From assembly GCA_002840645.1 (NCBI GenBank), contig PHBO01000001.1:156731-220730 (forward strand): 64,000 nt of DNA, read 5' to 3'. Below the pieces are notes generated by a model, which had not been told where the DNA came from, made no database searches, and worked only from the letters and a program-made list of their open reading frames with translations. Shown one piece after another: positions 6,643 to 56,663 of this stretch. Origin of the DNA: Candidatus Cloacimonetes bacterium HGW-Cloacimonetes-3 (GTDB taxonomy: Bacteria; Cloacimonadota; Cloacimonadia; Cloacimonadales; Cloacimonadaceae). Positions within the stretch are counted from its first letter, which is position 1. Every line of letters begins with the position of its first letter. The position numbers were made by a program, and so were the translations under genes.

Positions 6643-6693
6643 AAAAAAGGGGACGGATGGAGCTAAGCCACCCGTCCACTGGTTTATAATGCT

Positions 6694-8129: not shown

Positions 8130-8177
8130 CAGCCCAATATGACTCTCACTCTTATCACAAAACTAATAGGAGGTAAT

Positions 8178-8453
8178 ATGAGCAGAGATGATTTAGTAAA
8201 AAAGATCGCAGGTGCAGCCGGCATTTCCCAGAAAGTAGCCGGTCTTGCCCTCGCCGCAGTTCTTGAAGGCGTCACCGAAACCCTCAAACAGGGTGGAAAG
8301 GTTTCATTGGTAGGTTTTGGTTCTTTCAGCGTTGCCCAGCGCAAAGCTCGCAACGGTATCAATCCCAAAACTAAAAAGCCTCTTAAAATTCCAGCTCGCA
8401 AAGTACCAGTTTTCAAAGCCGGTAAAAAGCTGAAAGAGGCTGTAAAAAAGTAA
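8178..8453 (+). CDS. hup: HU/IHF-family DNA-binding protein
   Basis: MSRDDLVKKIAGAAGISQK...GKVSLVGFGSFSVAQRKARNGINPKTKKPLKIPARKVPVFKAGKKLK; SD AGGAGG at 8168-8173. Confidence 0.95.
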   Translation: MSRDDLVKKIAGAAGISQKVAGLALAAVLEGVTETLKQGGKVSLVGFGSFSVAQRKARNGINPKTKKPLKIPARKVPVFKAGKKLKEAVKK

Positions 8454-8479
8454 CCCATTAATTCACATTCCTTAGGTAA

Positions 8480-8509
8480 GGCAGAAAGGTAACTTTCTGC
8501 CTTTTCTTT
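8480..8509 (+). terminator. Rho-independent terminator of the HU gene
   Basis: GGCAGAAAG gtaa CTTTCTGCC followed by TTTTCTTT. Confidence 0.88.
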
Positions 8510-8693
8510 GTAGGTGAAATCCTTTATTAAACCAACACGGGGTTTAGCCGATAGAACCTTGACACACGGTTCTGATAGCCTTTGTGTTCTATGCAGGTTC
8601 CGAGGGGTTCCGCTCGCTGCACACCCTCGCTATGATAATACGCCAGCAAGGGCTTTAATTGGCGATCTTCCTATGATTTTATAACACCACTAA

Positions 8694-8874
8694 GTCTGGA
8701 GTCGATTCGGCTTAGATATCTTTTTACGGACAAATAACTGTTATAGCCGGAAGGACTACAGAGACACTAACAGGTGTTTTAACTGGCAAAGCCGTAGCAA
8801 GCTTACGCTGTAGTCCATGTCGCAGCATAAATCTCAATAACTGCAAAGTTACCTATGCGACATCGACTCCAGAC
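8694..8874. other. Candidate structured RNA / cruciform element (cloverleaf-like nested inverted repeats)
   Basis: Outer stem 8694-8704/8864-8874 (11 bp) encloses 8753-8761/8808-8816 (9 bp), 8817-8824/8856-8863 (8 bp) and a weak 5-bp stem; inner hairpin UAACU-GCAA-AGUUA has a GNRA loop. No convincing ORF. Confidence 0.45.
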
Positions 8875-9517
8875 ACAATGCGACCCAACAAATATAAGTA
8901 TAAACACAGAGGTTACAACTACAAGAGTATGATGCCAGATGCCAAAAAGAACGCATGCCAACTCCCATCACTTCATCATCATTGGCTTACACTGTAACAG
9001 AGAGAAGGAGACAAGAAGTAGTAGCATAGCAGTATAGTATTATATATCATATATATAGATATATGTAATGTCTCTTGTAATCTCCCTTTTCTTCTGCCGT
9101 GTACACTGGAAAACGATGAATGATAAAACCAATGAAAAAGGCGTGTTTTAAGCCCGCCTTACTCGCTATAATCTATTCTCTCTTATTTCCCTCCAGCCCT
9201 ACTTGCCCGTTCATCTCTACACCAGATGAATTTCCCATTCCGGTATTGGAGATGTTTATGCAGAATCCGGCTATCCAGGCTATCTTTGGGATAGCTGTCC
9301 CGTATTCTTGTTATACTCATTTTCACGCAGGAGTAGCTGTTATTATCGCTGCTGACCTTAAACATGCGTAGCGTAACAGCGCTAATATCCCCAGCGGCAG
9401 GATACCGCCTACTTCCATTGCTATCTTCGTGAAGATGATGTATCTGTTCTCGGAGCTGGACGAAGGGCATATCGATCTGGCAGCCCCCACAATAACAAAC
9501 ATATTGCGTAAAAAAAG

Positions 9518-9544
9518 CCACGGAGGGCACAATACCCTCCGTGG
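9518..9544 (-). terminator. Rho-independent terminator for the 1.0-kaa secreted protein gene
   Basis: Perfect 10-bp stem CCACGGAGGG/CCCTCCGTGG with 7-nt loop, followed on the minus strand by CTTTTTTT. Confidence 0.85.
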
Positions 9545-9574
9545 TTTCTTACGTATATTTCGGCAGTTGTGCTA

Positions 9575-32605: not shown

Positions 32606-33001
32606 ATGGGAAAATATGATCAAATACTTGAATACATAAGTTACTTTGAGCTTGAGAGTAACGAGTATGGAAAAGAAGTATTTAATCCAAATACAATGGC
32701 ATACTGGACGTATAACAATAAGCTTAAATCTTTTATGCGATGCATAAGTGAATCAGATTTGATGAGAGTAGATTATCTGAGCTTTATCGACATGCCAAAT
32801 AGTGAGCAGATTACTGAAGAAATCGAGTTAGCAGATATTGAATTACTGAAGGCGATGTTTACATATTACAATCGGCAGGAACGATTTCAGGAAGGATTAT
32901 GGTTCTTTACTGCCAAGGACGGTATATTCCTCAGGTTACTGAAACGTTTGCAAGAGATTGTTAATAAGCCAATGGAGGGAGAATGTCAGCAATCAGAATA
33001 G
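32606..33001 (+). CDS. Hypothetical protein, first gene of the DUF6361/PLD/helicase operon
   Basis: 131 aa, overlaps the next ORF by 19 nt, same strand. Confidence 0.65.
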   Translation: MGKYDQILEYISYFELESNEYGKEVFNPNTMAYWTYNNKLKSFMRCISESDLMRVDYLSFIDMPNSEQITEEIELADIELLKAMFTYYNRQERFQEGLWFFTAKDGIFLRLLKRLQEIVNKPMEGECQQSE

Positions 33002-34182
33002 GGTGGATTGATTTTTCCAAAGAACATCGCAATAAAGTAATCAGTGTAATGCATCTACTCACCGAGCCTGGAGCAATGGATGAGCTTGGAGTTGGTGTCG
33101 TTCGAGATGTATTCTCCAATATCTTTTTCCCGGGTACTTCGACTATCCAGACCCGAGCCAAGTATTTTCTAATTGTGCCCTTTCTGCTTTATGAACTTGA
33201 ACATCAGAAGGTTAGCAGTGCAGATGAATTTATAAGCAAACTGCATGACCAGGAAACAAAGCTCATAGATATTTTAAAGAAAAGTGGAGAAGAAGGGATA
33301 ATCGGCTCCTCTGCTGGAGCTGAACTGAAACGCAAACCTTCAGATGTATACTGGAATGGTATCAGCACCTATCACATATTCAACTGCGACAGGATGTCGA
33401 TTTATGATTATGCCAAGGTTGTATGTACTCTGCAAACCAGAAAGCAAAAACTCAAAGATCAGGGTAGTACTAATAACAAAGATGACGAGATTGATGGGGA
33501 TGATAAAGATGCCTTATCTGGAGACCTTTTAGGTAGATTCTGGAAGCTGCCTGATATTCCTGAACATTGGAAAGACAATCTGAGCATTAGACTCAGTAAT
33601 CAAGAAGCAATTTTCCTGAAAAACAAGATTGTGTCATCCTGTCCAGAATCAATGCTGAGCTACGTTCTTAAGGAAGAGGATCATGATTTCATAGCCATCC
33701 ACGAATTTGACCATATCGAAGGAATCATGGATAGGATTCCAGTTCACTTGAAAGTTCATTACTTACTGGCTAAGCAGTTTGCTGATTTTATATATGGTAC
33801 CCATCTAAGATACAACGTGATCCTATCCAAGGGAGAAAGCAGTGACATCCTAAAGAAGTGGAACGAATGGCATGTTGGAATTATGGATCATGCGAGCATT
33901 GATTTGAATCTGATACTCCCTCTCCTGGGCAGAAACGGTAAACTCTTCAGATTCCTCACTGAATGCAAAAACGCCATGCAGCTAGACGAGATCAAGAGAC
34001 TGGATCAACTCGTTCTGAATAGAGAAATTGACCTTAAGGGTAAGACCAGATCCAAACTGTATAATAGAGAGGATTTCGCTTATAATGGGTGGGTAGGTAT
34101 CAGCAAGCTGCAATACAGGCTTCCCAATGCCCAGAGGTTGTTAAAAGACATCTTTGATGGATTGGGAGCAGCTAATGTTTAA
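32983..34182 (+). CDS. DUF6361-family protein
   Basis: IGWIDFSKEHRNKVISVMHLLTEPGAMDELGVGVVRDVFSNIFFPGTSTIQTRAKYFLIVPFLLYELE resembles the DUF6361 N-terminus. Confidence 0.8.
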   Translation: MSAIRIGWIDFSKEHRNKVISVMHLLTEPGAMDELGVGVVRDVFSNIFFPGTSTIQTRAKYFLIVPFLLYELEHQKVSSADEFISKLHDQETKLIDILKKSGEEGIIGSSAGAELKRKPSDVYWNGISTYHIFNCDRMSIYDYAKVVCTLQTRKQKLKDQGSTNNKDDEIDGDDKDALSGDLLGRFWKLPDIPEHWKDNLSIRLSNQEAIFLKNKIVSSCPESMLSYVLKEEDHDFIAIHEFDHIEGIMDRIPVHLKVHYLLAKQFADFIYGTHLRYNVILSKGESSDILKKWNEWHVGIMDHASIDLNLILPLLGRNGKLFRFLTECKNAMQLDEIKRLDQLVLNREIDLKGKTRSKLYNREDFAYNGWVGISKLQYRLPNAQRLLKDIFDGLGAANV

Positions 34183-35947
34183 GCCAACCAGTGACCGTTT
34201 AGATTACAGCCAGATACTCGCTCCTCCCCCTGGATATGAAACCGTTTTTGCAGTAGGAACAACTTACTCACTTGACCTAGATGCTCTTATCGGAGCATGT
34301 ATAGCATTGGGTTTATCAGAAAGTACTGATAGCGCATTGAAGGATAACCCTCTCTACCTGCTCGAAGCACTCCGCAAAACATCCGATAAACTGTTGCTCT
34401 TTTGTGAAGCTGGTCAGATTAAGGCTCCCGGTATATCGAATAAACTACACCTCCTTCTTGAGAAGATGGTGGTAGAAATTGTGATGAAGAAAACGAAATC
34501 CTTCCATCCCAAGCTTTGGTTGGTTAAGTATGAAAATGCAAAGAAAGATACTCTGTACCGGTGTGTGGTGCTAAGCCGTAATCTAACTTTTGACCGCAGT
34601 TGGGATGTATCAGTTTGCATGGAAGGAAAGCCTGTTTCTGAAGCGAGCATCGATAAAACCAAACCTCTAACTGACTTTTTTATTGCTATATCACAGCTTG
34701 TTAATCGTCACGACATTGATAAGACAAAAAAGAAGTCACTATTGAGTCTAAGCACTGAACTCCAGAATGTGGAGTTTCAGCTTGAGAGCAAGATATTCAC
34801 TGATTTCAGCTTCTGTCCTGTGGGAATCTCCGGTTATGGTAAAGCACAAAGCGGGCTGTTCAAATCATACAACGAAATGTTGATAATCTCGCCATTTCTG
34901 AGTAGTAACATAGTTTCTGAGTTTAATACACTTGCCCTTACCAGTCAGCAACCCAAAACACTAATCACCCGTAAAACAGAATTGGCTAAACTCAGTCCGG
35001 ATGCTATTTCCAAATTTAACCTATTCGTTATGAAAGACATGGTCATTGATGGCGAAGAGAGTCTCGGCGAAGGTGATAATGATGACAAGCAAAGCCAGGA
35101 TATACACGCTAAGTTGTATTTAAAGACTAAATACTCAGATAGCGAGCTATTTATAGGTTCCCTGAATGCTACGAACAGTGCTATCAATGGGAATATTGAG
35201 TTTATGTTCAAGCTGTCTGGAAAACGAAGAAATCTGAATGTAGATGCCCTAAAACGAGACCTTTTTGGAGCCGATGACAAGAACAATCCGTTTGAACAAG
35301 TGGAGATAACAAATGATGCTGAACCGCCTCCAACAATCATAGAAAATCTGGATTTAGTTATCAAGGCCATCTGCAGGTTAAAAAGTAGTGCCAAAGTGCT
35401 TGAGATAGGCGACCAGTATTCTGTAGAGTTATCTTTTACAGGGTATCACCAGAATGATAATGTGTTTATCTCACCTTTAATGAAACCGGGCATGGAGCAG
35501 AACCTTACTGCAGCAATCAGGTTTGATAATCTTGATCTGCTCCAGTTGTCAGAGTTTTATATTATCCGTGTGATCGGTACAGAATCAAGCCTTAGAAGGG
35601 TTATCAAGATTAATACAGAGAATATGCCTGATAACAGAGAAAGCATGATAGCCAATAGCATTATCAGGAATAAAAGTGATTTCATCCAATACATCACTTT
35701 CATTCTGGGTGACAATTACCTTATCACAATGCTTGAGAATGCAAATCAGGCAAATTCGTTTAACTTTACCCACAAAGAACCTGTTCCAGCTCTCTATGAA
35801 AAGATGCTCAAAGCAGCGGCGCATTCACCTGGTAAACTTGATGAGATAAAGCAAGTACTGGAGCTTATAACTGATGACAGTAAGATACCGGACGGCTTCA
35901 AAGAATTATATGATCTATTTATGAAAGTGGTAAAGAAGAATGCTTGA
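34175..35947 (+). CDS. Phospholipase D-like (HKD) domain protein
   Basis: Two HxK motifs: SFHPKLWLVKY and IHAKLYLKTKYSDSELFIGSLNATNSAINGN. Start at 34175 overlaps the upstream stop. Confidence 0.82.
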   Translation: MFKPTSDRLDYSQILAPPPGYETVFAVGTTYSLDLDALIGACIALGLSESTDSALKDNPLYLLEALRKTSDKLLLFCEAGQIKAPGISNKLHLLLEKMVVEIVMKKTKSFHPKLWLVKYENAKKDTLYRCVVLSRNLTFDRSWDVSVCMEGKPVSEASIDKTKPLTDFFIAISQLVNRHDIDKTKKKSLLSLSTELQNVEFQLESKIFTDFSFCPVGISGYGKAQSGLFKSYNEMLIISPFLSSNIVSEFNTLALTSQQPKTLITRKTELAKLSPDAISKFNLFVMKDMVIDGEESLGEGDNDDKQSQDIHAKLYLKTKYSDSELFIGSLNATNSAINGNIEFMFKLSGKRRNLNVDALKRDLFGADDKNNPFEQVEITNDAEPPPTIIENLDLVIKAICRLKSSAKVLEIGDQYSVELSFTGYHQNDNVFISPLMKPGMEQNLTAAIRFDNLDLLQLSEFYIIRVIGTESSLRRVIKINTENMPDNRESMIANSIIRNKSDFIQYITFILGDNYLITMLENANQANSFNFTHKEPVPALYEKMLKAAAHSPGKLDEIKQVLELITDDSKIPDGFKELYDLFMKVVKKNA

Positions 35948-38900
35948 AAAGCTAAAGTCAATTGAACAAACTGTCTTAGATGGCTTGAAGGACTTCCAAC
36001 TGGCGACTGCCAAAAGAGTCTTTGAGCTATACAAGCAAGGTCAGAAAAGAGTCTTGGTGGCTGATGAAGTGGGACTAGGTAAGACCCTGATCGCTAAAGG
36101 AGTAATTGCTCAAACAGCCAGATATCATTATGAAGATATGCAAGACGAACTTTTTAAGGTAGTTTATGTATGTTCTAATCAGGTTATAGCCAATCAGAAT
36201 CTGAATAAGCTGAAAATCTGTGAAGACATCACAGTGGATGGGGTCACAGATACCAGGCTATCCATGCAACATTTGAAGATTTATGAGCAGGAGTCTGATC
36301 CTAAGATAAAAGCAAACTATATCCAATTGATTCCACTTACTCCATCAACATCGTTTTACATTACAAGTGGCGGAGGCAGTGCCAGCGAAAGGGCGTTGAT
36401 CTATGCAATTCTTAAGAGAACAAATCTCTTCAGGGAGTTGTTTGAAAAGCATGAAGAGAAAATGAATGACATCTTTACTTGCACTGCAACAACTGGATGG
36501 ATAGCAGAAAGAAACAGATATGAAGAACGCGTTGTAAGATGCAACACTAATTCTGGTGGTTCGTATTTAAAAATGATTACCAGCTTAGTAGAAAAGAGTA
36601 TCTTAGACAATGGCTTGTTCGACGACATCGCCTCTCTGATCATAGATAAAAGTGGGCAGTATGTCGTTATGGGTAAGCTAAGGATGTTGTTTGCAGAAAT
36701 CAGCGTTGATCTCCTTAATCCTGACTTGGTTATAATGGATGAGTTTCAGCGGTTCAGATCACTGATTAAGGAAGATAACTCCAGCGAAACAAGCGTTCTG
36801 GCTCACAAGTTCTTGATGGGCAATGATGTAAAAGTGCTACTACTCTCTGCCACTCCCTACAAGCTATATTCCACTCTTGAAGAAATTTATGAAACAGGCA
36901 GTGATGATCCATACTATGAGTTTCTGGAAGTAATGAAGTTCATACAGCCCAATAAGCATCAGGAATTCAAAGAAATCTGGAGTAACTACTCTCTAAAACT
37001 CAGGGAACTGCACCAGGACAAAACATCGATCATTGAAGCCCGTGATATTGCAGAAAATGCTATGTACCAGGGAGTCTGTCGAACTGAGAGAATGGCTGCA
37101 ATTAAAAAAGCAACTTTGATCGATGACACCAAGGCTAAACAAGCAATCAGTATAAACGAAAACGACATCGTTACCTTTTTGGAAGCAGAAGATTTAGTGA
37201 AGAGTATATCTGGAATCAGTACTGTGCCCGTTGAGTACGTAAAATCCTGCCCATACCTACTTTCATTTTCGAATCAATACAAGTTCAGAAAGAACATCGA
37301 TAACCATTTTCGGCATAATCAACAGATGATAAACCAAGCTAAGAGAAAGATGCTGTGGATAGATGAAAGCGGCATTGAGAAATATAAAGAACTTATCACA
37401 GCAAATGCCAGACTGGAGATGCTCAAAGAGATCGCTTTCGAGAAGAAATCTGAACTGCTGCTCTGGATTCCACCCTCTAAGCCTTATTATGAACCACAGG
37501 GGGCATTTAAAGAAGCACATAACTTCTCTAAGATACTGGTGTTTTCGGCTTGGGAGATGGTTCCCCGAATGATTGCTTCCCTCATTTCATATGAGGCAGA
37601 ACGGCGATCTGTTGGCAAGCTTGTTGCTTTGAATAAAGATAAGAAGAATACGACATATTCAGCACCAAATAGCAGACGCTTCCCGGTTGCAAGATTACGT
37701 TTTAACATTGAAAATGATATGCCACAATCAATGAGCTTATTCTGTCTCCTATATCCATCTCAAACCTTAGCTGAGATTTATAATCCAATCAGTTACCTTA
37801 ACGAAGGTCACAATCTACATGAAATAGAAGATGAGTTGAAGAGCATTATTGAAACCAAGCTTAGCAGATTGACCGTTTATCAAGCTAACCCCAACAGAGT
37901 GGATGAAAGATGGTATTATTTAGCACCTATGCTCTTAGATAATGTGGACTACGTAGAGAAATGGCTTGCTTATGGCAAAGAGCTTATCTCAGCCAGTTTA
38001 GATGAGGACGAGCAGAAAAGTCAAAAAGGTTTTGAGGTTCACCTTGCAAAACTAAGGGAATATTATAGAAATCCTGATGCTGCTCAACTGGGACTGTTTC
38101 CGGTAGACTTGGCTCAAGTCTTATGCAGAATGGCTTTGGCTTCACCTGCTGTATGTGCTTATCGAGCCTATGGTCAGAACGCAAATTATGCTTCTCAATT
38201 TGCCAAGGCTATGATCAATCTCTTTAACAGAAATGAAGCGACTGCAATAATAGAGCTCTGCTACGTGAAAACAAGTGAAGATGCACATTGGATGAATGTG
38301 CTGCATTACTGTAGAGATGGCAATCTCCAGGCGATGCTGGACGAGTTCATTCACATGCTTACCGAATCAAATGGCTTAATTGATAATGAAAACAGGTACA
38401 AAGCTACCCATACTTTGATGCTGAATACCATGAAAACCCACTCAGCAAGTTATACAGTAGATACCTATCGAACCTTTAAGACCAATATTCTCAAAGGTAA
38501 GGAGAAGGGTATTTCACTCAGGTCTCATTTTGCTGTTGGATTCTATAAAGGCGAAGGCGAAAGCAGTAAGATAGTAAATCGTAAAGAGAGTATCAGAAAT
38601 TCATTTAACTCACCCTTTAGACCCTTTGTATTGGCTACTACATCTATCGGACAGGAGGGATTGGACTTCCATTACTACTGTCGAAAAATCATGCATTGGA
38701 ATCTGCCTTCAAACCCCATCGATCTCGAACAGAGAGAAGGTCGAATCGACAGATTCAAATGCCTTGCAATCAGGCAGAACATAGCAGAAAAGTATGCCGG
38801 AACGATTACATTCAAAAATGATGTATGGACAGAGATGTTTGATAGAGCAAAGCTGGAATACAATCCTGAGTACTCCGAATTGGTTCCATTCTGGTGTTTG

Positions 38901-39125
38901 CCAGATGCACAGGGCAGCAAGATTGAACGCATTGTCCCATCCTATCCACTGAGTAAGGATATAGGGAATTATGAAAGGTTAATCAAGATACTATCGTTAT
39001 ACCGATTAACTCTGGGTCAGGCAAGGCAGGAAGAGCTATTGGAGCATATCTTCAAGAACTTTGAGAATGGTGAGGAACTAAAAGAGCTTTTCATAAACTT
39101 GAGTCCATACTATAGGGATCATTGA
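35940..39125 (+). CDS. SF2 helicase (SNF2/DEAD-like), partner of PLD and DUF6361
   Basis: Walker A ADEVGLGKTLIAKG, motif II VIMDEFQRF, motif III LLLSATPYKLY, motifs V/VI ATTSIGQEGLDFH...LEQREGRIDRFK. Confidence 0.87.
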   Translation: MLEKLKSIEQTVLDGLKDFQLATAKRVFELYKQGQKRVLVADEVGLGKTLIAKGVIAQTARYHYEDMQDELFKVVYVCSNQVIANQNLNKLKICEDITVDGVTDTRLSMQHLKIYEQESDPKIKANYIQLIPLTPSTSFYITSGGGSASERALIYAILKRTNLFRELFEKHEEKMNDIFTCTATTGWIAERNRYEERVVRCNTNSGGSYLKMITSLVEKSILDNGLFDDIASLIIDKSGQYVVMGKLRMLFAEISVDLLNPDLVIMDEFQRFRSLIKEDNSSETSVLAHKFLMGNDVKVLLLSATPYKLYSTLEEIYETGSDDPYYEFLEVMKFIQPNKHQEFKEIWSNYSLKLRELHQDKTSIIEARDIAENAMYQGVCRTERMAAIKKATLIDDTKAKQAISINENDIVTFLEAEDLVKSISGISTVPVEYVKSCPYLLSFSNQYKFRKNIDNHFRHNQQMINQAKRKMLWIDESGIEKYKELITANARLEMLKEIAFEKKSELLLWIPPSKPYYEPQGAFKEAHNFSKILVFSAWEMVPRMIASLISYEAERRSVGKLVALNKDKKNTTYSAPNSRRFPVARLRFNIENDMPQSMSLFCLLYPSQTLAEIYNPISYLNEGHNLHEIEDELKSIIETKLSRLTVYQANPNRVDERWYYLAPMLLDNVDYVEKWLAYGKELISASLDEDEQKSQKGFEVHLAKLREYYRNPDAAQLGLFPVDLAQVLCRMALASPAVCAYRAYGQNANYASQFAKAMINLFNRNEATAIIELCYVKTSEDAHWMNVLHYCRDGNLQAMLDEFIHMLTESNGLIDNENRYKATHTLMLNTMKTHSASYTVDTYRTFKTNILKGKEKGISLRSHFAVGFYKGEGESSKIVNRKESIRNSFNSPFRPFVLATTSIGQEGLDFHYYCRKIMHWNLPSNPIDLEQREGRIDRFKCLAIRQNIAEKYAGTITFKNDVWTEMFDRAKLEYNPEYSELVPFWCLPDAQGSKIERIVPSYPLSKDIGNYERLIKILSLYRLTLGQARQEELLEHIFKNFENGEELKELFINLSPYYRDH

Positions 39126-39237: not shown

Positions 39238-39810
39238 TTATCGTTTCCATTTGTATTCAATTAGGTCTACAAAGCCGTCTTCACCGCGAACTGAATCTAA
39301 GCCATTGTACTCATCTGAGTGCTTGAAAGTAAGAAACAAGACACCTTCGCCGATATCAGCGTTTGGTTTACGCTTGTGGTCATAGTAACATCTTGGGGCA
39401 ATGACTAGCTGTCGAAAAGGCTCGTTAAGGCTCCAGCTATCGCCCTTTAACTCCTGAAACTGCTGATCTATTCTTACAATGTTTTTTAGCAATTCTTCAG
39501 CGTATGCACGTACTTGTTCTGCTGCCATATTAGTAGATCCGCTTCCATTTGTATACTTTGTTTCAATAATGTAGAGATTTCTTTCCTCATCATAAGCTAC
39601 AAGATCTATTCTCTTTTTTTCAATAATGACTTCACCTAAGGGTATTTCATAACCGCAAGTCATAATAACTCTATTGTTTTGTTCGACCAAGCGCAATTTC
39701 GCTCTAGATGTGAACAGTTCCCATTGCATATGTTGTTCTTTTCTACTAATGTCTGGCTCTTTGAAGCGGTCGTAATTGAATAAGTGCAGGGGTTTGGTAC
39801 GGGTTTTCAT
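39238..39810 (-). CDS. PD-(D/E)XK nuclease-like protein
   Basis: KKRIDLVAYDEERNLYIIETKYTNG: D-Xn-ExK core. Confidence 0.65.
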   Translation of the reverse strand: MKTRTKPLHLFNYDRFKEPDISRKEQHMQWELFTSRAKLRLVEQNNRVIMTCGYEIPLGEVIIEKKRIDLVAYDEERNLYIIETKYTNGSGSTNMAAEQVRAYAEELLKNIVRIDQQFQELKGDSWSLNEPFRQLVIAPRCYYDHKRKPNADIGEGVLFLTFKHSDEYNGLDSVRGEDGFVDLIEYKWKR

Positions 39811-39833: not shown

Positions 39834-40559
39834 CTAGTACAGGCTGTCATCAGCAACGTGAATAAACACTTTATGTATATTCTCAGAATTGTACAGCTTC
39901 TCAATGCCCAGTGCCCGATCCTGTATGTAAAGAGAACTTTCCCAACCTGACACATCTTTGGGGCAATTGTATTTTGAATCCCGTACATCTCCTATGAAAT
40001 AAACAAGTACGATATGAGGATTATAGTTGTTCCGCTTCAGATAATCAAATAGCACAAGACGATTAGCGAGTTGGTAATAGCTATTGAGCCAATGGCTTTC
40101 ATTGTATTCTATGTTTAAACTCTCTGCAGTTCTCTTAAATGCTCTTGATATTTTGTTAATACTTACTTCTGATGTTGCTTTGCATTTAGATAGAAGTTCT
40201 TGTGTATGAGCTTTAGCCTCAACAAGAATAATATCTCTATTTTCATGTCCTTTACTTTTTAAATCGCTTGATACTAACCAACCGACAGCATCCCAATTAT
40301 GTTGTTCTCCAGAGGTAGGCCATACTTCTTTCCAGCCAGACACAACTGATTCGCTGTCTATGAATTCTAAACCTTTCAATTCAGAGTCGTACCATTTATC
40401 TTTTTCATGATTGAAATTGAAATCTAGCCAATCAATCCTTGCGTCACTTGTTGAATTACCCATAGCATTTATTATTGCCTTGTTAAAAGAATTTCTATGT
40501 CTGCCCATCCATCTAAGTAAATGGCATTCACTACCATATCCTATTCCTATTTTTGCCAT
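39834..40559 (-). CDS. PD-(D/E)XK nuclease-like protein
   Basis: NWDAVGWLVSSDLKSKGHENRDIILVEAKAHTQEL: D-Xn-EAK core. Confidence 0.55.
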   Translation of the reverse strand: MAKIGIGYGSECHLLRWMGRHRNSFNKAIINAMGNSTSDARIDWLDFNFNHEKDKWYDSELKGLEFIDSESVVSGWKEVWPTSGEQHNWDAVGWLVSSDLKSKGHENRDIILVEAKAHTQELLSKCKATSEVSINKISRAFKRTAESLNIEYNESHWLNSYYQLANRLVLFDYLKRNNYNPHIVLVYFIGDVRDSKYNCPKDVSGWESSLYIQDRALGIEKLYNSENIHKVFIHVADDSLY

Positions 40560-42604
40560 GATTTCTCCTTTGAATCAGTCTCATAAGTTATGTATGTTTC
40601 ACTAAATTCATTATTGAAATTCGCTTTTAACCATGCACTATGATAAGCAATTTTTGTCAATGTCATAGCATGATACTTTGGAAAAGCCATTCTACCATAG
40701 CTTTTAAAGAAGCTTAATACTTGATTTATTACTGGTTCAGTGAAACCATGCTCAAGAGCTTTAGTGGTAAAAGTCTCGAAGATGAGTTTAACTTCTTTGG
40801 GCTTTCCATGTATCAGTATTCTCTTGAAATTTTTTGCTTCTTCATCGGTGTATCCTGCCATTTGTCGCACCAAGCTAATTGTCTGCTCATGATAGATAAG
40901 CATGCCATGAGTCTCTGTTAAAATGCTTCTAAGTATAGGATGGGGATATTCCTGTCTGTTCTTGCGTCTATTTAAGTAGTCATTTAAGCGTTTATCTGGT
41001 TTTATTGTGTTAAGCACCATAAATGCCATCAATTCATTGAAACAGCATGGTTTGAACTTTTGTAATGCTTGCCGGGTGTAATTTGCATCAAGATGAAGGA
41101 CTCCCTCAGTTTCACCTCTTGCTATTATTGCATATGTTGAAGCGTCATTGAGTGGAATCGTATCAGGGTTTAAAGATAGCCCCCGGTTTTCCTTGATCAG
41201 AGCTAAGCAGTTCTGCATATCAATAAGAGCCTCCAGCTCAAAAATGTACAAGATTGGGTAACCGAGTTGCTCTAAAGCATGTATGTCAAATTGGTTATAA
41301 GGTATTGATTGATTGCGTGGCACAATTGGCAAAGGAGCATTACTCGGAACTATAACGAAGACTGTGGGCATGTATCCAATTCGTTCAAACACCCCCTCTA
41401 AGTCCGATATAATGCTTACTACCTTTGAGTAGAGATAGTTTTCCAAGGCGAAACAAGAGAAATCAATGGATTGCATTATCGCATCAAAAACAGACTTTGA
41501 GTACTTTGGCATCATATCAGTCAGCCATTCTATTTTGTCTTCAGAGACACCTAATACCCTGGCCACAGCACTAAACAGGTTCTTTGTGGAATAGCGACCA
41601 TATGTGCTTACAGGCACGATTTGAAAGTCACTGAAGCCATCTTGCACAGTTTCAACTAAATCATCCAGCATGCCAGATGGAATGTGTAAGTTGATCCTAT
41701 TCTTGGCTTTATATGATATGTAATTGCATTCAGGAAGGCTGCACTGCTGCAATTTTTCGAGGATGTCCGAAGCATTATGATTCATCTCTAAGGGGAGCTC
41801 AGACAAGAGATCAAGTTCAATACTCTCAGCAATTGTGAGGGTATTCGAAATAGCCTGTGGAGGATGATCGATGAGCTTTTTCATCTCCTGGGGTGTTTTG
41901 AAATAGTATTCATTGCAGGCAAATCGTTTGCTCTCAGCAGCTTTGAAGTCCATTCCTGTGCGCATGCAATTCAAGGCATCGATTGCTTCTGATTGCCGTT
42001 TATCTATGTAATGGCAGTCGTTTGTCAATACCACCTGAGTCTTAGTTTGGTACGCAAGGTTCAGTAGCAGGTTCATGGCAATCGCTTCCTTGGGTAATCC
42101 ATGATTCTGAAACTCCAGATAGTACCTGTCACTAAAGACAGACTTGTACCAATCGATGGTTTGAAGAGCATCATCCTGCTTATCTTCAAGAAGGAGAGTA
42201 CCCAGTTCTCCCACGACGCTGAATGAAAGGCAAATCAAACCTGTAGAATGTTTTGCCAATTGACTTTTAGTGGCCTTGGGTTCTGATCTATCATTCTCAT
42301 AAGCAAGACTGATCAAGCGGGATAGATTGTGGAAACCTTCCAAATTTTGAGCTATAAGAATCACCGAGAAAGCTCTGCTATCGCTAATATCATTTATAAC
42401 ACTGATCTCCAGTCCAATGATGGGTTTTATCCCTACGTCATTACACTTCTGACTGAACCGTATTGCTCCGGCTATTGAGTTTCTGTCTGTAATTGCTACA
42501 GCAGGCATCTTAAGTTCCTTGGCTCTTTTGACTAGCTTTTCTATCTGGCATGCGCCATCGAGCCAACTGTATTCAGTGTGAACATGTAAATGAACAAACG
42601 ACAT
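40547..42604 (-). CDS. Truncated, apparently polymerase-inactive DNA polymerase III alpha (DnaE)-like protein (PHP + degenerate palm + fingers)
   Basis: PHP: FVHLHVHTEYSWLDGACQIEKLVKRAKELKMPAVAITDRNSIAGAI; TNDCHYID; fingers: IPLNDASTYAIIARGETEGVLHLD...HGMLIYHEQTISLVRQMAGY...PKYHAMTLTKIAYHSAWLKANF. GRGS and PDxDxD palm motifs not found. Confidence 0.85.
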   Translation of the reverse strand: MSFVHLHVHTEYSWLDGACQIEKLVKRAKELKMPAVAITDRNSIAGAIRFSQKCNDVGIKPIIGLEISVINDISDSRAFSVILIAQNLEGFHNLSRLISLAYENDRSEPKATKSQLAKHSTGLICLSFSVVGELGTLLLEDKQDDALQTIDWYKSVFSDRYYLEFQNHGLPKEAIAMNLLLNLAYQTKTQVVLTNDCHYIDKRQSEAIDALNCMRTGMDFKAAESKRFACNEYYFKTPQEMKKLIDHPPQAISNTLTIAESIELDLLSELPLEMNHNASDILEKLQQCSLPECNYISYKAKNRINLHIPSGMLDDLVETVQDGFSDFQIVPVSTYGRYSTKNLFSAVARVLGVSEDKIEWLTDMMPKYSKSVFDAIMQSIDFSCFALENYLYSKVVSIISDLEGVFERIGYMPTVFVIVPSNAPLPIVPRNQSIPYNQFDIHALEQLGYPILYIFELEALIDMQNCLALIKENRGLSLNPDTIPLNDASTYAIIARGETEGVLHLDANYTRQALQKFKPCCFNELMAFMVLNTIKPDKRLNDYLNRRKNRQEYPHPILRSILTETHGMLIYHEQTISLVRQMAGYTDEEAKNFKRILIHGKPKEVKLIFETFTTKALEHGFTEPVINQVLSFFKSYGRMAFPKYHAMTLTKIAYHSAWLKANFNNEFSETYITYETDSKEKSWQK

Positions 42605-42613: not shown

Positions 42614-44482
42614 CTAAAATCCTATAATCTTTGTTGAGTTATTGCCTGCCCAGGGCTGCTCAAGAGCAGCGTATTTGACGATATCGGCCATCGTGAGGCG
42701 TTTAAACTTACCAGAGCGAGTAATGGCTTCACTACACGCATTATTAACAACAAGGGCTATCTGTCCGCCTGTGAATTCGTAGGTCTTTGCCAGATATTCA
42801 ATATCGATGTCTGTCGCACCAGGGATATCTTTACTAACGTGTAGCTTCCAGAGCATTATGCGGCAAGGGAGATCGGGTGGATTGAACTTTAGTTTCAAGT
42901 TGAACCTGCGGAAATATGCTTCATCGATGTTTTCATCCAGATTTGTGGTGAGAATCATTATCCCCGGAAAGCTCTCCATTGCCTCCAGGATGATGTTTTG
43001 AATTGAGTTATCTGTTCTGGAACCATAGCTATTCCTTTCGCTTCTATTATGAACAAGCTGATCAGCTTCATTGATGAGAAACACCGGGGGATTATCCATT
43101 TCGACAGACATCTTGTGCATCAAATCAAAGGAATTCTTGACCAGCTTCTCGGACTCGCCATAATAACTATCACGTAGCGCTGAGCAGTCTAATCCAACTA
43201 ATGGCTTCAGAAGAGCATTGGCTACAGCTCCGGCTGCATAAGTCTTGCCTGTTCCTGGCTTACCATAGAACAGAGCAATCATTCCTTTCTGAGAGTTATG
43301 TCCGATATTTAGTCCCCAATTGGCAAAGTCTTGGCAATCCAGTTGTTTGTAGCGATGGGTCAATGACATTAGCAGAGATTTGTCATGCTTTGGGAGAATC
43401 AGATCATCGATTGATTGCACTACATGAACCAATTTTAAGGCATTATTCTGCGACAGATAGTAAATTATCTGAGGCTTTTTTACTGATTTTTGCTCTCCAC
43501 AGAGTCGCAGCTTCAATTCTTCGGGGATTGAAAAGTCTCTTCGATTGGCAAAGCTTCTTACGTCTTCTACTTGCAGCAGGCATTGGGCAGTAAGTTTTGA
43601 TTCTGGTCTTAAATAACGGGAGTAGCAACTAATTTCTTGGTCACTATTACAAATGATCCCAAGCAACTCATTTTCTGTTATGCAATTATCTTGTGTTAAC
43701 TGGGTATAGAGAACCAATATCAGGATGCAAATTTCGATCTTATCAAGCTCATGGTCATTAATGAGCTTGGTGATAACCAACTCATTTCGGGCTTGGCCAA
43801 GCTTCACAAGCAAAGGCTCAATGCATAAAAAGAAAACATCCGCCTGGATACTCTTGGATCTTCTCCGGCGGTTTCCCTCAATTTCACCAAAGCAACTGAA
43901 GATAGTATTCATGCACTGATTCAAATCACTAATGAAATCAGAATCAGACAGCCAATCATGGGCGATAAGTCTGCCAATTTCATTGGGTATACTCCTGCCA
44001 AGTATCTTCATGATCAATAGATTGCTCAGCATAAACTCGCCCGACAGCAGAATTATCGGATTGATATGATAGTCACTCTTGATCGATTCATCAAATGTGA
44101 TAAGCTTGCGGTCAAGAAGGCTCTCGATGTATGCCAGGCAGGTATTGGTATCATAGACATTCATCTTTAGTTCTCTGCAGAGGGCATTCCAGGACATACT
44201 TGTACCCATACACTCTATGTGCTTTTTCCATAGAATGGCAATGCACAGTACATCCATCTTGGTCAGCTGATACTCAACAAATTCTGGATGCGAGATCAAT
44301 GGGGAAATCTCTTTGCTTAGTTTTCGCTGTGATACTTGTGTGGTAGTGGTCTGGCTTGCTAAAGTGACCTCTCTTGGCTTCTTGCCTATCTCGTGTCTTG
44401 CATCAGGAAATGACTCTGGATCATTCATAATCATAACTTTGTGCAGGATGTTAACTGGGCACAGAAACTCATTGCTATTCAT
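42614..44482 (-). CDS. AAA+ ATPase
   Basis: Walker A FYGKPGTGKTYAA, Walker B PVFLINEADQL (D->N variant), sensor LTTNLDENIDEAYFRRFNLKLKF. Confidence 0.87.
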   Translation of the reverse strand: MNSNEFLCPVNILHKVMIMNDPESFPDARHEIGKKPREVTLASQTTTTQVSQRKLSKEISPLISHPEFVEYQLTKMDVLCIAILWKKHIECMGTSMSWNALCRELKMNVYDTNTCLAYIESLLDRKLITFDESIKSDYHINPIILLSGEFMLSNLLIMKILGRSIPNEIGRLIAHDWLSDSDFISDLNQCMNTIFSCFGEIEGNRRRRSKSIQADVFFLCIEPLLVKLGQARNELVITKLINDHELDKIEICILILVLYTQLTQDNCITENELLGIICNSDQEISCYSRYLRPESKLTAQCLLQVEDVRSFANRRDFSIPEELKLRLCGEQKSVKKPQIIYYLSQNNALKLVHVVQSIDDLILPKHDKSLLMSLTHRYKQLDCQDFANWGLNIGHNSQKGMIALFYGKPGTGKTYAAGAVANALLKPLVGLDCSALRDSYYGESEKLVKNSFDLMHKMSVEMDNPPVFLINEADQLVHNRSERNSYGSRTDNSIQNIILEAMESFPGIMILTTNLDENIDEAYFRRFNLKLKFNPPDLPCRIMLWKLHVSKDIPGATDIDIEYLAKTYEFTGGQIALVVNNACSEAITRSGKFKRLTMADIVKYAALEQPWAGNNSTKIIGF

Positions 44483-51600: not shown

Positions 51601-51932
51601 TTATCAATGGAGATTTCAAACAGGTTGCAGATGGCAAATGGTGGATTCGCAAGGTAGAAGGCTGGGTTCCCAAGAATCCCTATAGTCCCAACGATGGTTT
51701 GAAAGAAAAGGTACTCATTGTCTGGCGCAAGCTGACCGGAAACCTGGAAGAGGATAACCTTATCCTGGACGCATGGTTTCAGAAGAACCGTATCAGTACT
51801 CTTGACTGGGAATTTGACACCATCTATGTAAATGGCAGTAATAATCTGCCTAACCTGCAACAGGATGGCGATACCTGGAAGGTACGGCTCATTGAGGAAG
51901 AATTTATGAAGCGGATGTGGGAGCAAAACTAA
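48627..51932 (+). CDS. Large Mod-like DNA N6-adenine/N4-cytosine methyltransferase (type III-like)
   Basis: YIYIDPPYNTNEASFIYKNEYKHSSW (motif IV) before DYFAGSGTTGQAVINLNR (motif I): beta-class order. Confidence 0.88.
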   Translation: MPTTDQLRSKLINKLKELFQLNQPDLDFGFYRIMHAKSEQVSSFIENDLLQVIQDTFGQVDETKKDKLKQELDNAIQTAIDFGAPDPETTTKVIEARAKYEAIKDSASSEAEIYDHLYRFFERYYDDGDFISRRYYTRETPGKAAPFSIPYNGEEVKLHWANADQYYIKTTEYFANYAVNLTEAVKGLKETKKKSDEEIDLDDSSVPEGLKLHFRIIDATEGDHANVKASDATKRYFLIHKAKPVELNDKNELIINFEYRPDQAGAKQDALNKDALSAIIYALKLEPSMAAYYEHLSHRTPTDKDKDRILLTKYVNQYTARNTMDYFIHKNLGAFLKRELDFYIKNEIMRLDDIENAEVPKVEDYLSKIKVLRKIAIKLIEFMAQLEDFQKKLWLKKKFVVETNYCITIDRVPEALYPQIIANKEQIGEWIKLYAIDEIEADTTCPAFTNPPTLNFLKVNNKLMLDTRFFDDAFKARLISSIQDFDDKCDGLLIHSENFQALNLAQQRLLGQVTYIYIDPPYNTNEASFIYKNEYKHSSWGTMVFNSINKSKPLMSSNGLISIAIDDLEQPFLANICDELFGIEERLGTLVIEIKPSGRTNDNFLATSHEYILFYGYNSSETKICFFELTDDQKNQYFETDDSSAYKWRDFLRTGGYSTPEERPNSFYPIYYDEVTGKVTLEETEGYLKILPIDSEGKFRVWRKTPPSFLEHLNSGEINIKKSINGQWKVQIIDRIKQGTRPKSVWVGKKYDAASHGTKHLKQLFGNSAPFSFPKSVFAVSDCVYIVSGDSDLDHVILDYFAGSGTTGQAVINLNRNDGGNRKYILVEMGDYFDTVLKPRINKVVYSKDWKEGKPKDRDTGISHCFKYLRLESYEDTLNNLVLQNEPIRDITLADNASLQEDYILHYMLDVESKGSQSLLNIDAFNDPTSYALKVKKPGSDEYIEKAVDLIETFNYLIGLRLVHLGVPQTLTAASTRVPDPDLPQDQDTKLIINGDFKQVADGKWWIRKVEGWVPKNPYSPNDGLKEKVLIVWRKLTGNLEEDNLILDAWFQKNRISTLDWEFDTIYVNGSNNLPNLQQDGDTWKVRLIEEEFMKRMWEQN

Positions 51933-54900
51933 TGGCTCGCAAAACAAGCTTACAGAACCATAAATTCTCCAATAAACTGCTCCTTAACCAGTGGTTGATG
52001 AGTCAATTTGGAATTGACCCGCTCTTGGAATATAAGGATAATACCCGACCATTTCACAAACTTGCTGCACCCATCAGAGATAACCGCATGGAGGGTTATG
52101 ATACGGACGGATTACACCGTTTTTACCATGAACTGGTGAATAGCGAGCTATTTTACAATGAGCTCCATCCCATCAGCAAAGAGCAGCTACGCATCTATGA
52201 GGAAAACATCGTCTCGCATACCAGAACTATAAACTACTTACGTAGTAGACCTATTGTCTGGAAGTACTTTCAATGGCTAACTCTGCTTTTTGTGGAAATC
52301 TATCTGGATCGTTATTTTACCGATAAAGCAAAGCTGCTGGATGATCTGAATGTCTATCTAAAGAGGTTTAATGAAAAGTGGACTGGCTTTCAGAATCTTG
52401 AGCCATACTCTTTTGATGATCTGAATAAGTTATGTCTGCAAAACGCAACGGGAAGCGGTAAGACCCTGCTGATGCATGTTAACCTCTTGCAGTTCCGGCA
52501 TTATGCCAAAAAGACTCGTGAGGGAAGTGAGATATCCAGGGTAATCTTGCTTAGCCCCAATGAACGGCTTAGTGAGCAGCATTTGGAAGAGCTAAAGATT
52601 AGCGGTTTCTATTCTGCCCAAAGGCTAAAAACCAAGCAAGACGGCAGCATTGATATGGTCGATGTAATCGAAATCACCAAACTCGGTGATACCGAAGGAC
52701 CAAATACAATCGCCACCAGAAGCCTTGGGGATCAAAACCTGCTATTGGTTGATGAAGGGCACCGGGGGATGAGCGGAAAAGATGAAGGAGTGTGGTTCAC
52801 AAGAAGATCAGAACTATGTGCCAAAGGCTTTACCTTCGAATATTCTGCCACGTTTGCCCAAGCTGTTGCCGCTGCGAATAACAGAGCATTTGAGGATAGC
52901 TATGCCAAGACCGTGATCTTCGACTATTCCTACAGGTGGTTTTACGAAGATGGATTTGGCAAGGACTACCAGATATTGAACCTGCCAAAAACCTATCAGC
53001 AGGTGCAGGATGTGTATCTGACTGCCTGTCTACTCAAATACTATCAGCAACTCAAAGTCTATGAAGATAAGAAACTGGAAATTGTCCCATTTAACTTGGA
53101 AAAACCTCTGTAGGTCTTTGTGGGTAGTACTGTTACCAAGAAAAAGGGTAAACAAGAGGTTGAGCTCCCCAGCGAGGAGTTACTCTCGGACGTGGGGCAG
53201 ATTATAGTCTTTATCGCTAAGTTCCTGAGTAACGATGCTGTTTTCCAAAAGAGCATTGAGAAGATCCTCTATGACAATGGCAGCAGTACCGGGCTGCTCG
53301 ACGATGCAGGCAATGACATCTTTGCAAATTCATTCAATTATCTCCTCAAGACCGCTAATTCTACTGATAACATTTCCGAGATTTATCACGATATTCTGAA
53401 GACACTGTTCAACAACCCAGCCGGAGGACAACTTAGCTTGGCAAGGCTTAAGGGAGATTCCGGTGAAGTCGCTTTGTATCTCGGCAATAGCGACACACCC
53501 TTTGGTTTGATCAATGTCGGAGATGCCAAGGGTTTGTGTGATCACATAGAAGAGACTGCCAAACACAATGATATACAGTTAAATGTGGAAGATAGCGATT
53601 TTACAGAAGCGATGTTTGCTTCAGTGAAGGATTCCTCATCTCCCATCAACCTATTGATCGGGTCTAAGAAGTTTGTCGAAGGGTGGGATTGCTGGCGTGT
53701 TAGTACCATGGGTTTGATGCATGTCGGTAAGAGCGAAGGAACGCAAATTATCCAGCTATTTGGGCGCGGTGTGCGCTTAAAAGGGTATGAGTGGAGTCTG
53801 AAGCGCAGTGGGCATACTTATGCCACCACAAAGCCTGGATTCATTGAAGATATCGAAACCCTGAATGTCTTTGGCATCGAAGCTGACTTCATGGATAAAT
53901 TCAGACAATTCTTACGTGATGAAGGCTTGCCTGGCAACGAGAAAAGGCTGGTTATAACAATCCCGATGAATGTGACTGCTGATTTTGGCAAAAAGCTAAA
54001 GATACTACGACCTAAAAAGAAGAAAGACGGCACTGAATACGATTTTAAGAAAGACGGACCAGTACCCACTATTGGCAATGTACCTCAGTATCTGCAAAAG
54101 AATCCTGTAGTATCGGACTGGTACCCCCGGATTCAAACCATCAAGTCACGAGGCACACTGCAAGATGGTCAAAAAGACGAGGTAATACTAAAGAGTAAGC
54201 AGATAAGCCTTCTGGATATGGATCGCCTGTATTTCGAACTTGAACGTTTCAAACGGGAAAAAAGCTGGCACAACCTCAATCTCAGCAAACAGGGGATTAT
54301 CAGCTTGTTATCAGATACATCCTGGTATCGGCTATTCTTGCCTGAAACAAGGCTCATGCCTCAAAACTATGATGAAGTGCTCATCCTTCAACAAATAGCT
54401 ACTGAACTGGTAAAGCGATTCTGTGAGAAGTACTATAATTTCTGCAAGAAGTCTTTTATCGAACCTCGACTGGAACTAAGAGAACTGACTCCTGATGATG
54501 ATAACTTGCCTTCTGATAAAGAATATCAGTTGATTGTGGATGGCGATGATATCCATGTAATCGAAGGGATTAAGAAGCTGAAAGATGAGATCATTGTTAA
54601 GAAAGACCAGCTTCTGCATGTAGGCGACCTCAAAGCCTGCAACTTTGGCAATCATCTTTTCCAACCCTTGTTTCATGTGCGTCATGGCGGGAACATCACG
54701 ATCTTGCCAGTCTCTTTTAACGAGAGCGAATACCAGTTCATTACTGACCTGAAAGCATGGTGCGATAAGAATCATAAGGATATGAAGGATAAGGGAAAGG
54801 AGTTATATCTTCTCCGCAATCTAAGTCGGGGCAAGGGAGTGGGCTTCTTTGAAGCTGGTAACTTCCATCCCGATTTCATCCTCTGGGTTCTTTCTGAAGG

Positions 54901-55168
54901 CAAACAGTATGTTCACTTCATTGAACCACATGGACTGATGCATGAAGGGATCAACAGCGAGAAAATCCAGTTCCACAAGCGCATCAAAGAGATAGAGGCA
55001 AGGCTGGGTGATCCCAATGTTATCTTGAGTAGCTGGATATTGTCTGCAACTCCCAAACAAGAGCTTAGTCTCCGTGGGTATGATCCAGATGAGTATCTGA
55101 AGAATAATGTGGTGTTTATGGAAGACCAAGACACTTATGTTTCAATGATTATTAAACGGATGAGATAA
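51932..55168 (+). pseudogene. Type III restriction Res-like DEAD helicase, interrupted by an in-frame amber codon at 53111-53113
   Basis: LQNATGSGKTLLMHVNLLQF, LLVDEGHRGM in 5' half; VEGWDCWRVSTMGLMHVGKSEGTQIIQLFGRGVRLKG in 3' half; both halves in the same frame, ...NLEKPL-TAG-VFVGSTVTKKK.... Confidence 0.85.
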
Positions 55169-55244: not shown

Positions 55245-56654
55245 ATGACAGAATGGGGAAGTCAAATACTAAAGGTTGGTCCTAAAATTGATTTTAATGC
55301 TAAAAATCCTGATCAGGTAACTGCCGAAAATGTCACAGACACAGAAACACAAAAGAACCAACTTATCGATCAGTATAGAAAGAACATTGAACCATGGTTA
55401 TCATCTCTATTTCAGAGTGAACACTTATCTCTATTAATCGGAAGTGGATTCACGACTGCCATAGCAAATAAATGCTGTTGCACAGCTCAAGGTATGGGCT
55501 ACGATGAGACCAAATTTCCCGAAACTCATAGAGTGATTCTTGATAAACATACAAAAGAAACAGCTAAATCTATCCGGTTAAGTGATCCAAACATTGAAGA
55601 TCAAATCCGTGTGTTAAGTCAATCCATTGATGGTTTAGAGGCTCTTGGTGATAGCGTTAATGCAGAAGCATTTAAAACTTCATTAAACGAATTGATATCA
55701 TCTTTTTTATCAGGATTACTTAAGACTGAGTGTGGTATAGGAAAAAAGCTGTTTGAGTCGATTGAAGAAGGTCCCATTAATACACTGATCCCATTTCTAA
55801 TGAGCTTTGCATCGAGAACCGCTTCCCGCGAAAGGTTGAATTTGTTTACAACGAATTATGACCGGCTTATTGAATTGGGCTGTGATGCTGCGGGAATAAG
55901 AGTTTTAGACCGTTTCGTTGGATCTTTAGAACCAGTTTTCAGGTCATCACGTCTTGATATTGATATGCATTATAACCCTCCTGGTATAAGAGGAGAACCG
56001 AGGTATTTGGAAGGAGTTGTGAGACTTACAAAATTGCATGGCTCTCTGGATTGGCGATATGACACAGACTTAAAAGTAATAAGGAAAGTCGGGTTACCAT
56101 TCGGAGTTGATACTGTTGTGAATCCCCTCCCTACTAATCCGGCTTACAGTGTGATGATTTATCCTAATCCTATGAAAGATCGAGAGACTGCAGAATATCC
56201 ATATGTGGAATTGTTTCGAGATTTCGCTGCAGCCGTGTGTAAACCTAACGCTACCTTGGTGACTTATGGTTACGGATTTGGAGACGATCATATAAACCGT
56301 ATTATCTCAGACATGCTGACAATCCCATCAACTCATTTACTAATTATCTCTTACGACAAATCAGATGATAGGATTAAACATTTCTATGAAAAACAGGGAT
56401 TTGAATCTCAGATATCGTTATTGATAGGTTCACATTTTGGTGACATCTCTACATTAGTTGAACAATATCTCCCGAAACCATCAATAGATCGCATTTCTAA
56501 CAGGATGTTTGAGTTGTTAAGTAAGCGTATCAACTGTAAGGAAAAAGCTCCTGAAGTAACTGAACATATTGCTGTCGATCAAGATATCACTCAAAAAACA
56601 GATCAACCTGAAACCATCATAATCCCCACAGTAGATGATGATGTCCCATTTTAG
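55245..56654 (+). CDS. SIR2-like domain protein (SIR2-HerA system) with SSB-like C-terminal tip
   Basis: LLIGSGFTTAIANKC; LFTTNYDRLIELGCDAAGI; LTKLHGSLDW; LVTYGYGFGDDHINRII; ends PTVDDDVPF*. Confidence 0.85.
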   Translation: MTEWGSQILKVGPKIDFNAKNPDQVTAENVTDTETQKNQLIDQYRKNIEPWLSSLFQSEHLSLLIGSGFTTAIANKCCCTAQGMGYDETKFPETHRVILDKHTKETAKSIRLSDPNIEDQIRVLSQSIDGLEALGDSVNAEAFKTSLNELISSFLSGLLKTECGIGKKLFESIEEGPINTLIPFLMSFASRTASRERLNLFTTNYDRLIELGCDAAGIRVLDRFVGSLEPVFRSSRLDIDMHYNPPGIRGEPRYLEGVVRLTKLHGSLDWRYDTDLKVIRKVGLPFGVDTVVNPLPTNPAYSVMIYPNPMKDRETAEYPYVELFRDFAAAVCKPNATLVTYGYGFGDDHINRIISDMLTIPSTHLLIISYDKSDDRIKHFYEKQGFESQISLLIGSHFGDISTLVEQYLPKPSIDRISNRMFELLSKRINCKEKAPEVTEHIAVDQDITQKTDQPETIIIPTVDDDVPF

Positions 56655-56663
56655 GAGTTTACA

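What the first reader, a model, noticed from the sequence alone, without database searches (positions are those of the whole stretch)
40547..42604. DnaE-like protein that has lost all three polymerase aspartates, the GRGS loop and the whole C-terminal half
Aligned by eye to E. coli/Taq alpha subunit. The PHP domain and fingers align well (IPLNDASTYAIIARGETEGVLHLD ~ IPLDDPKTYELLQRGETTGVFQLE; HGMLIYHEQTISLVRQMAGY ~ YGIILYQEQVMQIAQVLAGY). The region matching PDFDVDF reads INLHI (both Asp replaced), the segment with GPGRGSAAGS is deleted, and KFDFLGLRTL is replaced by YIFELEAL. The protein ends right after the fingers, so it lacks the HhH, OB and tau/clamp-binding regions. The frame is open over 685 codons, so loss of catalysis seems selected rather than decay. 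The PHP motif II His (TDH) is Arg here (TDRNS).
Basis: partly seen in the sequence, partly recalled or inferred. Interest (0 to 1): 0.8.

Follow-up and report, generated by a model that had tools for sequence, protein, structure and literature searches.

The report
Dead replicase homologue in defence island
In some bacteria of the phylum Cloacimonadota, a relative of the main DNA-copying enzyme has lost both of its active sites but is still kept by natural selection, and it usually sits beside an ATPase and a DNA-cutting enzyme among anti-virus genes, so it has probably been reused as a non-copying part of a defence machine.

Summary
Window 40547-42604 (-) encodes a 685-aa DnaE homologue: PHP domain, a remnant of palm and thumb, then fingers. 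The DxD aspartates became N and H, the third aspartate is gone, the GPGRGS loop is deleted, and the chain ends after the fingers (E. coli residue ~795). The genome has a separate intact DnaE.

This is no decaying copy. It is one of 13 loci in 11 of 124 Cloacimonadota genomes, forms one clade (SH-aLRT 100), and is under purifying selection (dN/dS 0.05-0.21 in PHP, 0.24-0.33 in fingers). A sister group of eight proteins lacks the fingers altogether, so the PHP domain is the constant part.

The gene usually follows a novel 225-aa protein and an AAA+ ATPase, and adjoins a PD-(D/E)XK nuclease with an intact catalytic motif. These cassettes sit beside known defence systems (Zac, Hma, type III R-M, SIR2-HerA). 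Best reading, inferred only: a catalytically dead replicase fragment acting as recognition or docking subunit for the nuclease, governed by the ATPase. Defence, metal content and partners are untested. No published description was found in the searched library.

The parts
40547..42604 (-). Pseudo-DnaE, 685 aa: PHP 1-266, low-confidence linker about 273-312, remnant palm/thumb about 312-450, fingers about 451-680; both polymerase and PHP catalytic sites altered
42614..44482 (-). AAA+ ATPase, 622 aa; Walker A GKPGTGKT intact, Walker B LINEAD (Asp to Asn, Glu kept), invariant C-terminal IGF; best PADLOC match IetA (E 7.8e-23) but far below the NCBIfam cut-off for that family
   Evidence: conserved partner in L006, L080, L082, L083, L087
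44507..45184 (-). P225, 225-aa protein of unknown fold, first gene of the cassette
   Evidence: family alignment A1; no clear PDB fold match; co-occurs with pseudo-DnaE
39834..40559 (-). PD-(D/E)XK-type nuclease, 241 aa, motif WDAVG...ILVEAKAH; its start overlaps the end of the pseudo-DnaE gene by 13 nt, with an AAGGAG inside that gene
   Evidence: alignment with five relatives, D and ExK invariant; overlap seen; no Pfam family
39238..39810 (-). Second PD-(D/E)XK-like protein, 190 aa (IDLVAYDEERNLYIIETK); relatives in L006, L083, L085; membership of the cassette less sure

Best explanation
The protein belongs to a Cloacimonadota family of doubly inactivated DnaE paralogues that has become a non-catalytic subunit of a multi-gene, probably anti-phage, nuclease cassette (P225 - AAA+ ATPase - pseudo-DnaE - PD-(D/E)XK nuclease). 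Proposed mechanism: the PHP domain, with one metal site probably still filled and an Arg where another metal sat, binds a DNA 3' end, a primer-template or a replisome protein without processing it, and holds the PD-(D/E)XK nuclease, much as the inactive PHP domain of E. coli Pol III alpha holds the epsilon exonuclease. The AAA+ ATPase with P225 loads or releases this complex, and the nuclease cuts. Shown: sequence losses, family, selection, gene neighbourhood, intact nuclease and ATPase motifs. Inferred: metal occupancy, DNA or protein binding, docking of the nuclease, role of the ATPase, defence function.
For: Both catalytic sites are changed while the own-genome DnaE (G000:C30) keeps HHDHEHCDH and all Asp. 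Purifying selection in PHP, middle and fingers. Of 75 PHP columns conserved in DnaE only six are fixed to another residue in the ten sound family members, and two of those are metal ligands (H41R, H80S); 8 of 9 ligand positions are invariant in the family against 40% of PHP columns (hypergeometric P 0.003), so the pocket is still constrained. Kept ligands include the set equivalent to Mtb Zn2 (H, H, E73, D226); the Zn1 ligand H107 equivalent is lost (H107 and E73/D226 roles from PMC5636811; the full assignment of the other ligands is my own knowledge). A PD-(D/E)XK gene adjoins or lies within a few genes of most members, with D and ExK intact, from several nuclease families. P225 and pseudo-DnaE co-occur (5 genomes against 0.6 expected, Fisher P 4e-5, not corrected for kinship). 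Defence systems next door: Zac, type III R-M, SIR2-HerA in the window; HmaABC in L006, HmaAB in L082, Zac in L081, Mko-like helicase and methylase in L083.
Against: No experiment and no predicted complex supports nuclease docking or DNA binding. Nuclease families vary while the PHP domain is conserved, which a specific docking surface would have to accommodate. Three orphan or near-orphan loci (G003, G007, G012) keep the gene without P225-AAA, two of them under clear purifying selection, so the cassette is not obligatory. Some P225-AAA pairs have no pseudo-DnaE (L090, L094). The core of a barrel is conserved in any case, so the pocket statistic is only suggestive. Position in a defence island does not prove a defence function.
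Confidence: 0.4

Rival explanations
1. The PHP domain is still an enzyme: with one intact metal site and Arg41 standing in for a second metal, it is an altered phosphoesterase or nuclease and is itself an effector; palm and fingers are disposable DNA-binding remnants.
For: Six of nine ligands kept, including the equivalents of D23 and D226 that are essential in Mtb DnaE1; Arg41 invariant in 10 of 10 sound members; PHP is the most constrained and the only universal domain. Bacterial PolX shows that a PHP can outlive its polymerase (PMC12926913).
Against: Surveys treat any deviation from the nine-residue motif as inactive (PMC12926913); the Zn1 site lacks its His and Cys equivalents here; E. coli alpha also keeps a partly altered, inactive PHP (from memory).
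Confidence: 0.2
2. Decoy or guard: the protein mimics host DnaE so that a phage protein that attacks or hijacks the replisome binds it and triggers the nuclease.
For: Replicase mimic next to ATPase and nuclease in defence islands; fold overlays Pol III alpha.
Against: No tracking of the host: identity of the PHP to own-host DnaE (42-45%) is no higher than to DnaE of other Cloacimonadota; fingers are absent in the sister group, so only a PHP mimic would be common to all.
Confidence: 0.13
3. Not defence: a replication or repair accessory (for example a regulator of the host replisome or of mobile elements) carried in islands.
For: Orphan copies at chromosomal sites between ordinary genes (L084, L085); distant AAA relatives beside ribosomal-protein genes or IS21-like genes.
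Against: Patchy distribution (11 of 124 genomes), repeated defence neighbours, nuclease partners.
Confidence: 0.2
4. A decaying duplicate of dnaE with no function.
For: Loss of both sites, low-confidence linker, progressive shortening (685, 455, 359 aa), some broken copies (G019:C4 fragment, G009:C76 with a stop, degenerate G019:C17).
Against: dN/dS 0.05-0.33 and intact frames in at least ten loci across several genera.
Confidence: 0.04

Closest known systems
DNA polymerase III alpha subunit, DnaE1 (C-family)
   Same: PHP and fingers sequence and fold; closer to Cloacimonadota DnaE (42-45% in PHP) than to other phyla (37-39%)
   Different: No catalytic Asp triad, no GRGS loop, no HhH/OB/CTD, altered PHP ligands; separate long-branched clade
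PolX-like proteins (Actinobacteria) and polymerase-dead PolX1, PMC12926913
   Same: Polymerase function lost while the PHP domain is retained
   Different: X-family; their PHP site is kept intact, here it is altered as well
ImuB and other inactive Y-family polymerases (iPolY) in DnaE2 mutasomes
   Same: A dead polymerase kept as a structural subunit of a multi-protein machine
   Different: Y-family, translesion synthesis, no nuclease cassette
E. coli Pol III alpha PHP with epsilon exonuclease (4gx8)
   Same: Fold of the PHP (rmsd 1.9 over 263 residues); a non-catalytic PHP that serves another nuclease is the model proposed here
   Different: Partner here would be a PD-(D/E)XK protein, not DEDDh; untested
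IetAS anti-phage system
   Same: AAA domain most like IetA among PADLOC models (E 7.8e-23)
   Different: 80.7 bits against a cut-off of 510; no IetS protease found beside it; other partners

Membership tests
DnaE / Pol III alpha (active C-family polymerase) | three catalytic aspartates in the palm | tested here: not met
   N, H and a non-Asp residue at columns that are D in 17/17 DnaEs
DnaE / Pol III alpha (active C-family polymerase) | GPGRGS loop | tested here: not met
   deleted
DnaE / Pol III alpha (active C-family polymerase) | PHP domain and fingers | tested here: met
   Pfam PHP and DNA_pol3_finger above cut-off; fold match Z 46.9
DnaE / Pol III alpha (active C-family polymerase) | HhH, OB and C-terminal clamp/tau region | tested here: not met
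   protein ends after fingers
PHP exonuclease / phosphoesterase | nine metal ligands HHDHEH[C/H]DH | tested here: not met
   HHDRESSDH, six of nine kept
PHP exonuclease / phosphoesterase | metal binding and hydrolytic activity | not testable with these tools
   needs protein
IetAS | IetA ATPase above family cut-off | tested here: not met
   80.7 bits, cut-off 510
IetAS | adjacent subtilisin-like protease IetS | tested here: not met
   none among flanking ORFs scanned in the window
PD-(D/E)XK nuclease (241-aa partner) | D ... (D/E)xK motif conserved in relatives | tested here: met
   WD...VEAK invariant in six sequences; family assignment by motif only, no significant Pfam match
Any catalogued defence system containing a DnaE homologue (PADLOC 2.0) | a matching model for the pseudo-DnaE | tested here: not met
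   no PADLOC model hits it, nor P225, nor the 241-aa protein

The most novel reading that the evidence does not exclude
A new defence system in which a retired replicase, dead at both active sites, acts as the sensor of invading DNA replication: its rebuilt PHP pocket (one metal plus Arg41) reads 3' ends or primer-templates and licences an exchangeable PD-(D/E)XK nuclease under control of an AAA+ ATPase and a protein without a recognised fold.
Probability: 0.2. Interest if true: 0.82.

Novelty: new variant of a known kind. Interest (0 to 1): 0.6.

Why it matters
Dead polymerases serving as subunits are known in the Y, B and X families. I found no description of one from the C family, the bacterial replicases, in the two large surveys consulted or in the searched library. 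If the cassette defends against phages, it would show that the replisome has been mined for parts of immune machines, and would give a small system in which to ask what a PHP domain does without its exonuclease site.

Tried and rejected
Sequencing artefact or chimera: rejected, same architecture in independent genomes (83% and 71% identity). Phage origin: viral contigs gave no P225 relative; 80 viral matches to the pseudo-DnaE looked like ordinary phage DnaE in a motif check, though in some the regular expressions missed a palm or GRGS motif and these were not read one by one. Plasmid and phage collections returned matches at under 60% identity, those listed being annotated or looking like ordinary DnaE. 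P225 against PDB: nothing above Z 3.9, so no fold assigned. Distant P225 relatives on plasmids (about 110-185 aa, 31-34% identity) had no common informative partner. Host-tracking test for a decoy: negative. Origin within Cloacimonadota DnaE: not resolved by the tree, because of the long branch; only identity favours it. Presence outside Cloacimonadota could not be tested well: one genome-contig scan, close relatives only, and the genome search cannot be centred on other phyla. Two papers on conflict systems and BREX held no mention of PHP or DnaE parts.

Full report
What is there. The window lies in a 2.7-Mb genome of a Cloacimonadota bacterium. The ORF 40547..42604 (-) encodes 685 aa. It starts nine nucleotides after the end of an upstream AAA+ ATPase gene, with a clear ribosome-binding site, and its end overlaps the start of the next gene by 13 nt. 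Pfam finds a full PHP domain, part of the palm/thumb model and a full fingers domain. Against 17 intact DnaEs the D-x-D is N-x-H, the third aspartate is gone, the GPGRGS loop is absent and the protein ends where the fingers end. An AF2 model (mean pLDDT 83.6) overlays E. coli Pol III alpha over residues 4-794 (Z 46.9); 273-312 is not confidently placed. Carboxylate positions could not be measured because coordinates are not released by the tool.

The PHP domain has lost three of its nine metal ligands: HHDHEHCDH of the ten Cloacimonadota DnaEs checked, that of this genome included, reads HHDRESSDH here. In the Mtb DnaE1 structure E73 binds Zn1 and Zn2, D226 binds Zn2 and H107 binds Zn1 (PMC5636811). 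The equivalents of E73 and D226 are kept, that of H107 is Ser. By the criterion used in the recent survey of bacterial polymerases any deviation counts as inactive (PMC12926913). So this is a replicase homologue with both active sites altered.

A family under selection. A search of 124 Cloacimonadota genomes gives 13 loci in 11 genomes above the DnaE background: three long forms (685, 682, 682 aa; 83% and 71% identical to the window), a fingers fragment (G019:C4), seven short forms of about 455-484 aa (one of them, G019:C17, degenerate), a 359-aa paralogue in the same genome (G000:C21), and a broken copy (G009:C76). Short forms keep the PHP domain (64-67% identical to the window's in the pairs measured) and end before the fingers. 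Eleven members form one clade with SH-aLRT 100; long and short forms separate within it. Its place relative to Cloacimonadota DnaE is not resolved; PHP identity is higher to Cloacimonadota DnaE than to DnaE of other phyla in all six members compared. Nei-Gojobori dN/dS is 0.05-0.21 for PHP, 0.12-0.33 for the middle and 0.24-0.33 for fingers in pairs with usable dS. Eight of nine ligand positions are invariant in ten sound members against 40% of PHP columns (P 0.003): suggestive that the pocket still matters.

The cassette. Upstream lie P225 (225 aa) and a 622-aa AAA+ protein; downstream a 241-aa protein with a PD-(D/E)XK motif and a 190-aa protein with another. P225-AAA-pseudo-DnaE with a nuclease gene recurs in L006, L082, L083 and the second copy L087; L080 shows AAA-pseudo-DnaE-nuclease cut by the contig end. 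The nuclease differs: PF22558 REase-ARP in L080, L081 and L084, DUF6946 in L006 (whose EAK motif I read by eye), the 241-aa family in the window, L087, L083 and L045. A metallopeptidase-like protein (HELAH, by eye) and a Sel1-repeat protein recur in L082, L083, L085 and L087. P225 and pseudo-DnaE co-occur in five genomes, Fisher P 4e-5 without correction for kinship. Orphans exist both ways: G003, G007 and G012 have no P225-AAA at the locus, and L090, L093 and L094 have P225-AAA without the pseudo-DnaE on the held stretch.

The surroundings. From about 32 to 60 kb the G+C is 0.37-0.46, against 0.43-0.50 before it, and the stretch holds ZacABC, this cassette, a DrmD-like helicase with a type III methylase and a type III endonuclease in two pieces, and SIR2-HerA, then a Mu-type transposase. 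L006 has HmaABC downstream, L082 HmaA and HmaB, L081 ZacABC, L083 an Mko-like helicase and a methylase.

Mechanism. Established: losses, family, selection, neighbours, intact catalytic motifs in nuclease and ATPase (Walker B carries N for D but keeps E). Inferred: that the protein binds DNA ends or a replisome protein without processing them and docks the nuclease. I give this 0.4. Rivals are an altered but active PHP enzyme (0.2), a role outside defence (0.2) and a replisome decoy (0.13), against which the lack of host tracking speaks.

Known or new. The two surveys of C-family polymerases describe truncations after OB and PHP inactivation, not a catalytically dead, fingers-terminated or fingerless DnaE in an operon with a nuclease (PMC3919608 and PMC12926913, searched by terms and read in part). 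No PADLOC model covers the pseudo-DnaE, P225 or the 241-aa protein. The library lacks most subscription papers, so prior description cannot be excluded.

Noticed in passing
window 32983-39125 (+): Complete ZacABC defence operon (PADLOC E 2.8e-94, 6.9e-153, 0), preceded by a DUF6508 protein; Zac is also the neighbour of the pseudo-DnaE fragment in L081.
   Followed up: partly
window 51917-53113 and 53120-55168 (+): Type III restriction endonuclease split into two ORFs matching successive parts of one PADLOC model: a broken gene or a two-piece form, beside a methylase and a DrmD-like helicase.
   Followed up: no
window 55245-58793 (+): SIR2-HerA defence pair (PADLOC E 1.1e-169 and 1.6e-263).
   Followed up: no
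L087 (own genome, G000:C21) 5108-12400: Second, diverged copy of the cassette in the same genome with a 359-aa pseudo-DnaE, a 241-aa-type nuclease and a TnsB-like gene upstream.
   Followed up: partly
window 42614-44482 (-) and alignment A2: The AAA+ family has N instead of D in Walker B and an invariant C-terminal IGF, reminiscent of docking motifs; more distant members lie beside ribosomal-protein or IS21-like genes in other Cloacimonadota.
   Followed up: partly
L222, L221, L223, L224 (plasmids): The core of P225 (residues 61-174) resembles short hypothetical proteins on Acinetobacter, Photobacterium, Lelliottia and Agrobacterium plasmids, one near a TrlF (PHP-AAA) gene, one next to a tellurium-resistance operon.
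   Followed up: partly
L081 2694-3497: Fingers-only fragment of a pseudo-DnaE (267 aa, 74% identical) beside an intact REase-ARP nuclease: recent truncation or a domain on its own.
   Followed up: no
L082, L083, L085, L087: A HELAH metallopeptidase-like protein and a Sel1-repeat protein recur beside the short pseudo-DnaE.
   Followed up: no
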